NCBI GenBank assembly: GCA_002946415.1
Contig: NJPS01000040.1
Span: 170,072 to 234,071, forward strand
Length of the DNA stretch: 64,000 nucleotides
Source of the DNA: Rutstroemia sp. NJR-2017a BVV2
Taxonomy: Eukaryota; Ascomycota; Leotiomycetes; Helotiales; Rutstroemiaceae
Direction: 5' to 3'
The position numbers and the translations under genes are program-made. A model generated the notes under the pieces. It saw only the letters and a list, made by a program, of their open reading frames with translations. It ran no database searches and was not told the DNA's origin. How positions within the stretch are numbered: position 1 is the first letter of the stretch; each line of letters opens with the position of its first letter. This document shows positions 25,380-28,300 of this stretch, piece by piece.

Positions 25380-28300
25380 ATGCGTTTGCTCGCACCTTCA
25401 CTCGCTATTGCGAGCTTTTTAGTGTTCAGTGACGTAGCACAAGCTTCAGTACAACATCCACCTCTAAGGCCTGCCAGGGTGGCATCATTAATACGGCCTC
25501 CTTTTGCCAACACTTCATCAGATGCATGTGCAACAGTGTCAACTATTGTTGCTCAAAATCCAGGTGAATATCACTCCATAGAGTCTAGTTACTTTGAGAA
25601 AGGTACTGACCTGAACCAGAATCTTTCATACCCGCCTTAACTGCCTTGGACTGTCTCAAGTCTGCGCCTGTCAATGTCAACCGATCGGTTGCATTCATCG
25701 ACTTCATCCAGCCTTACCTGGAGTTTCAAAGCACCTTAGCATATTTGAAAACCCCACCTCCGGGATGGCTCTTCCCTGGCGTAGATATCTTTGGCGGTCT
25801 GGCACAGATGAAAGATCTTCTAACATCTGGACAATATGCTAACCAGTGGGACTTTGAGAAGGATATATATTCCCTGATTAATATCCTGCCTCATGATTTC
25901 CATGTCAACTTGCCCCTGCCGCTCGTGAGCGAGGTATTCATATTCGCCCCTTTAACGGGCCCGCTCGTCTCGATATCTTCAGATGGATTGAGCCTTCCGA
26001 AAGTCTTTTTCAAGAGTGTGTACTTTCTAGCTGATAGGACAGCATGACATCCACTAAAACCCAACAGGAGATCTCGATCGCAGCCTTTTAAACGCCACTT
26101 TCACCCCCTCAGCACTCAGCACAGTCAACGGCGAAGACATCAACATCTATCTCCAACGAACCGCCCAAACACTAAGCGCGTACAACGACCCAGACTCCAC
26201 CTATAACACCCTATTCTTCTCTCTCCCATTCACAGTCTCCGGCGTCGCCAGCACATTCGATTTCGGGCAAACCTTCGGCTTCGACTCCAACTCCAACAAC
26301 TATACATTCGAAAACGGCACCACATCATCCTTCGACAATATAGCCGTTGCCAAAATCCCCTTCGACGACATCACCTCCGGTCTAGCCCTCTTCGACTTCC
26401 TCAACCCCGTCTCCTTACCCAGCAACCCGTCCTCCAACTCCGGCACCACCATCCCTGACCCCAGCCCCACCCCCACCCCCACAGCAGAAATTACCCCCAT
26501 CACCTCTCTCCCCGGCTACCCCACCCCAATCGTCATCCACCGCGACGGCTACACCTCCGGCTACTTCCTATCCTTCCCGTCCAACGACACCGCGATCCTA
26601 GCCCTCTCCTCCTTCACCGACGCCAACCAAACCGATCCTCTCGCCGGGCCCATGCAATCCCAAACCGTCGCCGACTTCCTCACCGCGTGTCTCGCAGCCA
26701 ACAAGTCGAAACTGATCATCGACCTCCAAGGCAACGGCGGGGGCATCGTTTTCCAGGCCTACGATATTTTCTCTCGTCTGTTTCCAACTCTTACGCCCTT
26801 TGGTGCGACGCGTATGCGGGATACGCCTGCTGCGAGGTACTTGGGGGAGGTGTTTACTATGAGCGTGGGGAGTGGAGAGGTGGATGGGAGTTTGAATAGT
26901 GATTTTGAGGCGCAGGCGTATGTGGATTTGAAGAATAATACGTTTGCGGATTGGAAGTGAGTTTTTTTTTCTGTTTTCTTCTGTCTTGTTTTTATAGCCC
27001 AACTTCTCGATCATGAAGAAAGAGGAAGCATGCATGATTCCTCTACTCCATCCTCAATATACCAACACAGTTTCAACATTACAACACACTACATAACTAA
27101 CCTGCCCCCTCTCCCTCAACAGCGCAGTCGACCCTCCCGAAACCATCTACGGAGACAACTTCACAGCCGCGACACGCTACAATCCGGGTCTTGTACTCAA
27201 CGCATCGATTGCTGCGACGCCGCAAGTATTTGAGAGTCAGAATATTGTTATGCTGTATGATGGCACCTGTGGCTCGACTTGCGCTGTGTTTTCTGAGTTT
27301 ATGAAGAGTCAGGGTGGTGTGCGGAGTGGTATGTTTCTGGGCTCTTTCTGCGTTAAGCAAAGGAAATACATGGGCTAATAAGTATAGTTGTTATGGGCGG
27401 TCGTTCTCAATCCGGTCCAATGCAAGGTGTTGCTGGGTCTAAAGGGTAAGCTTTCCTCCCCTCTCCTTTGCCTCTCCGTCCCACCCCTTCCCTTCTCCCC
27501 CCATCAGCCCAATTCATCCACCCTTCATTGTCCCAAACCAATTCTTCCCTTCTCCCCGACTCATTCATACTAACGCTCCCCTCCCCCCTTAGAGCCGAAG
27601 TTCTCCGCTACCTCGACATCGACACATTCTACACCGAAATCCCCTCTCTAATCCTGAACCTCACCCTCAACCAATCCACCCCACTCAACCTTACCCAGCC
27701 CACCCCACTCAACCTCACCCAACCCAACCCCCTCAACCAATCCACCACACTCACTCTCCCCTCCCCCCCCCCCCCCCCCCCCCCCCCCCCCCCCCCCCCC
27801 CCCCCCCCCCCCCCCCCCCCCCCCCCCCCCCCCCCCCCCCCCCCCCCCCCCCCCCCCCCCCCCCCCCCCCCCCCCCCCCCCCCCCCCCCCTCCCTCCCCC
27901 CCCCCGGCCCCCTCCTCCCCTGGCCCCTCGGTGTCTCCAGCACCCAAGCCGCCAGCTCGCGCTTCAATTTCCGGAACAACATGCCCTCCAATTCCACCTC
28001 AAACACACCCCTGCAATTCATCTACGAGTCCAGCAACTGTCGGCTCTTCTACCTCAAATCCGACCTCTACCAAATCGAAGGCCTATGGTCTCGAGTCCGC
28101 GATGTAGTGTGGGGAAATGGGAGTTGCGTGCAGGGGAGTACGGTTAGGGATGGGGATAAGTTTCCCGGAAACGCGGGGGACACGGTGGAGTATGAGCGGG
28201 GAGTGGATTCGAAGGTTAGGCTGGGGGGGCAGCCGGGTTTGGTGGGTGGGAGTGGGAGGAGGAATGGGACCGGGACGGTGTCCGGGGAGGGGGAGAGGAG

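What the first reader, a model, noticed from the sequence alone, without database searches (positions are those of the whole stretch)
27763..27890. 128 consecutive cytosines inside a coding exon of a secreted protease
An unbroken 128-nt C run (plus 10 more Cs after a short break) in exon 6 of the S41-type gene encodes about 45 prolines, sandwiched between a sequon-rich segment and conserved S41-family sequence. Homopolymers this long are very unstable; gain or loss of one base would put everything downstream out of frame, so the tract could act as an on/off or tail-switching element for a surface protein. The opposite strand is poly-G, able to form G-quadruplexes. It may equally be an assembly or sequencing artefact of a shorter run.
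Basis: partly seen in the sequence, partly recalled or inferred. Interest (0 to 1): 0.75.

Follow-up and report, generated by a model that had tools for sequence, protein, structure and literature searches.

The report
Over-long cytosine run in protease gene
A run of 128 Cs sits in a variable proline-rich linker of a fungal protease-family gene; the site looks real, but this assembly handles such runs badly, so its length, and the idea that it is a genetic switch, cannot be trusted without new sequencing.

Summary
The run is in the assembly: 128 C at 27763-27890 and 10 C at 27896-27905. The gene model puts it in exon 6 of an S41-type gene. Both flanks belong to one gene: 7 of 7 aligned relatives continue across the site and their longest proline run is 3. 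The sister strain Rutstroemia BBW reads LPS-PPPA-SLLPPG where the window has LPS-P42-SLPPPG, about 38 extra residues, in frame. So it is an expansion or insertion in a weakly conserved linker, not a false join. The public protein of this strain treats it as intron, against conservation. Length is the weak point: the genome holds 63 C/G runs of 18 or more; 15 of 157 readable contig ends carry C or G runs; two poly-C sites that were assembled twice, with flanks identical over 9353 bp and about 2.1 kb, disagree inside the run. Most likely this is a real C run in a passive proline linker, of unreliable and probably overstated length. Slippage by 1 or 2 bases would truncate the protein; nothing here shows a switch.

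The parts
27763..27890 (+). C x128 homopolymer, coding most of a 42-proline run
   Evidence: proline count
27896..27905 (+). C x10 run after a short break
27660..27738 (+). 24-nt tandem repeat (3.3 copies) coding LNLTQPTP-like sequons, part of the same variable linker
   Evidence: (TRF), translation
25380..28562 (+). S41-type gene with CPAF-like PDZ domain; exons 25380-25563, 25620-26015, 26068-26956, 27123-27328, 27388-27445, 27593-28562; 900 residues in frame
   Evidence: Model; Pfam PF23658 and PF03572; relatives
27593..28562 (+). Exon 6: conserved start (AEVLRYLDIDTFY), variable linker with the tract, conserved C-terminal block (SNCRLFY and others)
   Evidence: Alignment A1
27446..27592 (+). 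Intron 5 of my model
   Evidence: the exon-6 start that follows it is kept in 7 of 7 relatives
27446..27940 (+). Intron implied by the public protein P0001, which would remove the tract and 348 nt of exon 6; judged an annotation error

Best explanation
A short C-rich seed in the weakly conserved proline-rich linker of an S41-type protein carries, in this strain, an expanded C run. The run is exonic and codes a proline stretch that acts at most as a passive spacer between the protease domain and a conserved C-terminal block. The assembled length of 128 is not reliable and is probably overstated, because this assembly breaks, forks and garbles at poly-C. Shown: the site lies inside one gene, the sister strain lacks the run, and poly-C sites assembled twice disagree. 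Inferred: that the same unreliability affects this run, growth by slippage, and the spacer role.
For: Both flanks are unique in the genome and co-linear in 7 of 7 aligned relatives, whose longest proline run is 3. BBW has PPPA at the site. 63 C/G runs of 18 or more genome-wide against 28 A/T runs of 18 or more. 15 of 157 readable contig ends have a C or G run of 8 or more within 120 nt. C31/C35: flank identical over 9353 bp, tract C53 in one copy and about 154 nt of interrupted C in the other. C54: two copies differ at 3 of 2135 aligned positions, all 3 inside the C array and all A against C. Interruptions in 7 contig-end arrays are A 61, T 52, G 6 of 1379 nt.
Against: The window's own tract has no second copy, so its length is not directly contradicted. 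It is unbroken, like the single run of 18 or more in 31 of 35 interior clusters, and the frame is kept. C-rich flanks (0.39 and 0.36 against 0.22) suit real expansion too. Long G/C tracts are known in Caenorhabditis (PMC2211496, passages) and Sclerotinia sclerotiorum genes (PMC2621210, passages). Strand bias at contig ends is not significant (11 to 4, p 0.12), so no read-direction artefact is shown. The sequencing platform is unknown to me.
Confidence: 0.62

Rival explanations
1. The run is real at about its assembled length: a neutral mononucleotide expansion in a tolerant linker, in a genome prone to poly-C growth.
For: Unbroken run in frame; many other long interior runs, 15 of 35 clusters with a run over 32 nt; runs sit in C-rich stretches.
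Against: Four times the longest C. elegans G/C tract (32 nt, PMC2211496) and about twice the longest coding repeat of a fungal survey (68 A, PMC2621210); poly-C sites assembled twice disagree.
Confidence: 0.2
2. The run is almost wholly artefact: the true site has under about 20 C, as in the sister strain.
For: BBW has PPPA at the site; noise-like A and T interruptions in end arrays; C against A differences confined to the array in an otherwise identical duplicate.
Against: In-frame length; unbroken interior run; not seen in raw reads here.
Confidence: 0.11
3. The tract is a contingency switch: slippage turns the conserved C-terminal part of the protein on and off.
For: Changes of 1 or 2 bases truncate the protein to 748-762 residues; such tracts work this way in prokaryotes (PMC2831843, listing and abstract start).
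Against: No relative of 7 keeps the tract; frame kept has a one-in-three chance; poly-C in this genome is not confined to genes of one kind; no length variation was seen or could be looked for.
Confidence: 0.05
4. The tract is intronic, as the public protein implies (intron 27446-27940).
For: P0001 is reproduced from residue 4 onward by this splice, in frame; the acceptor is the first AG after the tract.
Against: It deletes the exon-6 start that 7 of 7 relatives keep; there is no A from 27754 to 27938, so a branch point would lie at least 186 nt before the acceptor, far more than is usual in such fungi (recalled).
Confidence: 0.02

Closest known systems
Poly-G/poly-C tracts of Caenorhabditis, kept stable by DOG-1/FANCJ (PMC2211496, PMC3368526; passages)
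   Same: Dispersed pure G/C runs of 18 nt or more, far above chance, mostly outside exons
   Different: There 18-32 nt, 396 in C. elegans, 4 in exons; here up to 128 nt, one in a well-supported exon, and tied to assembly faults; no helicase link tested
Long mononucleotide repeats in fungal genes (PMC2621210, passages)
   Same: Homopolymer inside a fungal coding sequence; that survey lists 5 Sclerotinia sclerotiorum genes among genomes whose long repeats are only G or C
   Different: Longest reported there is 68 A; this one is longer and of C
Homopolymeric-tract phase variation in prokaryotes (PMC2831843, listing only)
   Same: A tract whose length change would shift the frame
   Different: No length variation, selection or regulated phenotype shown here; much longer tract; the tract is absent in relatives
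Fungal S41 peptidases with a CPAF-like PDZ domain
   Same: Both domains found; 66% identity to a Clarireedia jacksonii protein over its length
   Different: The proline run between the S41 match and the conserved C-terminal block

Membership tests
Fungal S41 / CPAF-like peptidases | Peptidase_S41 and PDZ_CPAF_rel domains above the curated cut-off | tested here: met
   PF23658 102.8 bits (cut-off 27), PF03572 34.4 bits (cut-off 24)
Fungal S41 / CPAF-like peptidases | Catalytic residues and protease activity | not tested
   No solved relative found by sequence (P0002 against PDB sequences, 0 hits); residues not assigned
Phase-variable homopolymeric tract (contingency locus) | Tract length varies among cells or isolates | not testable with these tools
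   One assembly only, no reads
Phase-variable homopolymeric tract (contingency locus) | Frame shift switches expression or the protein end | tested here: inconclusive
   In silico only: changes of 1 or 2 bases truncate to 748-762 residues; no expression data
Phase-variable homopolymeric tract (contingency locus) | Tract kept among relatives | tested here: not met
   0 of 7 aligned relatives has it
Caenorhabditis-type G/C tracts | Pure G/C run of 18 nt or more, many per genome | tested here: met
   63 runs in 43.4 Mb
Caenorhabditis-type G/C tracts | Size range 18-32 nt | tested here: not met
   128 nt here; 15 of 35 interior clusters hold a run over 32 nt
Assembly artefact at poly-C | Same site assembled more than once with differing tracts | tested here: inconclusive
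   Met at two other sites; the window tract's flanks are single-copy, so not testable at the site itself

The most novel reading that the evidence does not exclude
The run is real at over 100 nt and this fungus sustains very long pure poly-C tracts genome-wide, some as arrays of hundreds of bases. It would then be a natural system for growth and breakage at G-quadruplex or i-motif DNA, with this gene as one hypermutable coding site, and the 18-kb tandem copy and the 9-kb shared contig end would be real rearrangements at poly-C.
Probability: 0.13. Interest if true: 0.7.

Novelty: new member of a known kind. Interest (0 to 1): 0.3.

Why it matters
If the length is real, it would be about twice the longest coding homopolymer of the fungal survey seen here (PMC2621210) and four times the longest C. 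elegans G/C tract (PMC2211496), in a genome with many more. If it is not, the finding still matters to users of this assembly: poly-C positions mark unreliable joins, duplications and gene models, including the public model of this gene, which drops 116 codons with a conserved block so as to skip the tract.

Tried and rejected
False join of two genes at the tract: rejected, since both flanks are single-copy and co-linear in relatives.

Directional read run-on as the cause: tested by contig-end polarity (11 C outward, 4 G outward, p 0.12) and by flank C content (0.39 upstream, 0.36 downstream, p 0.18). Not shown. Flank C+T content does differ (0.66 upstream, 0.585 downstream, p 0.003), but in the sense opposite to C noise after the run.

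Frame keeping at other coding tracts: from an open-frame scan of 38 loci I translated 11 of the 35 interior clusters. The clearest second coding case is the GNAT-type gene at L012, whose parts lie in frames 1, 2 and 0, so it is out of frame across its tract and once more upstream. L026 also has coding-like flanks in two frames, but its join is disputed by the C31 copy. This is too few to conclude from.

A solved-structure search with the relative P0002 gave no match. Paper searches for the genome's sequencing method gave no paper describing the assembly; PMC10569646 (passages) only uses the strain. Searches on poly-C and long-read artefacts and on tract switches gave listings with nothing directly on point.

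Full report
What is there. The window holds 128 C at 27763-27890 and 10 C at 27896-27905; no other C or G run of 8 or more exists in the 64 kb. The window is C35:170072-234071 of a 43.4 Mb genome in 79 contigs. A protein 99% identical over the best local alignment comes from a contig of the same length as C35, 234071, and is named Rutstroemia sp. NJR-2017a BVV2, so I take the genome to be that strain.

The gene. A six-exon model gives an in-frame protein of 900 residues with Pfam PDZ_CPAF_rel and Peptidase_S41 matches. The N-terminal end looks like a signal peptide and the C-terminal end like a GPI-anchor signal; both are my reading, untested. The tract lies in exon 6 and supplies most of a 42-proline run.

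Relatives. The first search listed 38 proteins. I aligned 7 of them (P0001, P0002, P0004 to P0008), the window's exon 6, and P0039, which a second search with the C-terminal piece found. P0003, the other half of the BBW gene, ends before exon 6 and was left out; the other 30 hits were not aligned. Setting aside the same-strain P0001 leaves 7 relatives: Rutstroemia BBW, Clarireedia jacksonii, Ciborinia camelliae, Botrytis paeoniae, Monilinia laxa, Botrytis fragariae and a more distant Rutstroemia WRK4 protein that may be a paralogue. All 7 keep the exon-6 start and the C-terminal block, and the longest proline run in any of them is 3. BBW reads LPS-PPPA-SLLPPG at the site, against LPS-P42-SLPPPG here. 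So the join is right, the extra part is a multiple of three, and it sits in a linker whose length varies among relatives.

The public model. P0001 is reproduced from its fourth residue on by an intron 27446-27940, which removes the tract and 348 nt of exon 6. That deletes the start of exon 6 which 7 of 7 relatives keep, and there is no A in the 185 bases 27754-27938 before the acceptor. I judge it an annotation error; RNA data would settle it.

Poly-C in the rest of the genome. Counting runs with another base before them, there are 299 C/G runs of 10 or more and 63 of 18 or more, against 28 A/T runs of 18 or more and 5 of 30 or more. By my count the 63 fall in 42 clusters: 35 interior and 7 at contig ends. 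Of the 35 interior clusters 31 hold a single run of 18 or more; the longest run per cluster is 20 to 128, and 15 of 35 exceed 32 nt. Flanks are C-rich, 0.39 and 0.36 against 0.22. Two of the interior clusters (C2, C50) lie within about 160 nt of a contig end.

Contig ends. All 158 ends were read and one is N. Of 157, 17 are telomeric and 15 have a C or G run of 8 or more in the last 120 nt: 11 with C outward, 4 with G outward, p 0.12. In 7 end arrays of 1379 nt together the interruptions are A 61, T 52 and G 6, which is not the excess of T that C-to-T mutation would give.

Sites assembled twice. The last 9353 bp of C31 equal the reverse complement of the first 9353 bp of C35, at 100%. Next to it one copy has C53 and the other about 154 nt of interrupted C, with different sequence beyond. 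C35 is the contig of the window, but this end is about 188 kb from the tract. At C54 the flank after the contig-end array recurs 18,251 bp further in, and a second probe recurs at the same offset. The aligned 2135 bp differ at 3 positions, all within the first 11 bases, in the C array, A against C. Upstream, the copy departs from its partner exactly where the C array begins. Whether these duplications are real or made by the assembler is open; either way poly-C is the break point and the copies of the run disagree.

A split gene. C29 ends and C54 begins in poly-C arrays whose flanks read as two parts of one MscL-like gene, apparently split in an intron. Pfam support is weak: one piece matches MscL at E 0.048, below the cut-off, three other pieces of L019 and L043 gave no MscL match, and the resemblance of the rest is recalled.

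A second coding tract. At L012 a GNAT-type gene has G12, C12 and C26 runs; three pieces of it lie in frames 1, 2 and 0 while relatives are continuous. Indel errors or a decayed gene would both do this. It gives no support for frame keeping at such tracts.

Known comparators. C. elegans has 396 G/C tracts of 18 nt or more, 18-32 nt long, 4 in exons (PMC2211496, passages). A survey of fungal genes reports 68 A as the longest repeat in a gene and lists Sclerotinia sclerotiorum among the genomes whose long repeats are only G or C (PMC2621210, passages). DOG-1 and deletions at poly-G/poly-C: PMC3368526, passages. PMC8113271 (one passage) and PMC8989526 (passages) added nothing used here. PMC2831843 was seen only in a listing with the start of its abstract.

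Verdict. The site and its coding position are well supported. The length is not, and the switch is not. Most likely there is a C run of unknown length in a passive proline linker. Interest is modest and would rise if sequencing confirmed a run over 100 nt.

Noticed in passing
L061 and L062 (C31 right end, C35 left end): 9353 bp shared at 100% between two contig ends, with a fork at a poly-C tract.
   Followed up: partly
L043, L210, L213 (C54, first 37 kb): Two probes recur at the same offset of 18,251 bp, as in a tandem duplication whose junction is a C array.
   Followed up: partly
L019 end and L043 start (C29, C54): Two parts of an MscL-like gene on two contig ends, apparently split by a poly-C array in an intron, so C29 and C54 may be neighbours.
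   Followed up: partly
L012, around 1180-1720: GNAT-type gene with pieces in three frames and G12, C12 and C26 runs.
   Followed up: partly
window 26400-28600: GC skew flips within the gene: 51% of 150-nt windows have absolute skew over 0.5, against 6.4% in 1-54000; the tract lies in a C-rich stretch and G-rich coding follows.
   Followed up: no
window 54800-63250: AT-rich stretch with many AT tandem arrays close to the contig end, possibly RIP-mutated repeats.
   Followed up: no
Rutstroemia BBW proteins P0003 and P0039: The BBW gene is annotated as two proteins, both from a contig of 204438 bp, the first ending in what looks like intron 4; a broken gene model.
   Followed up: no
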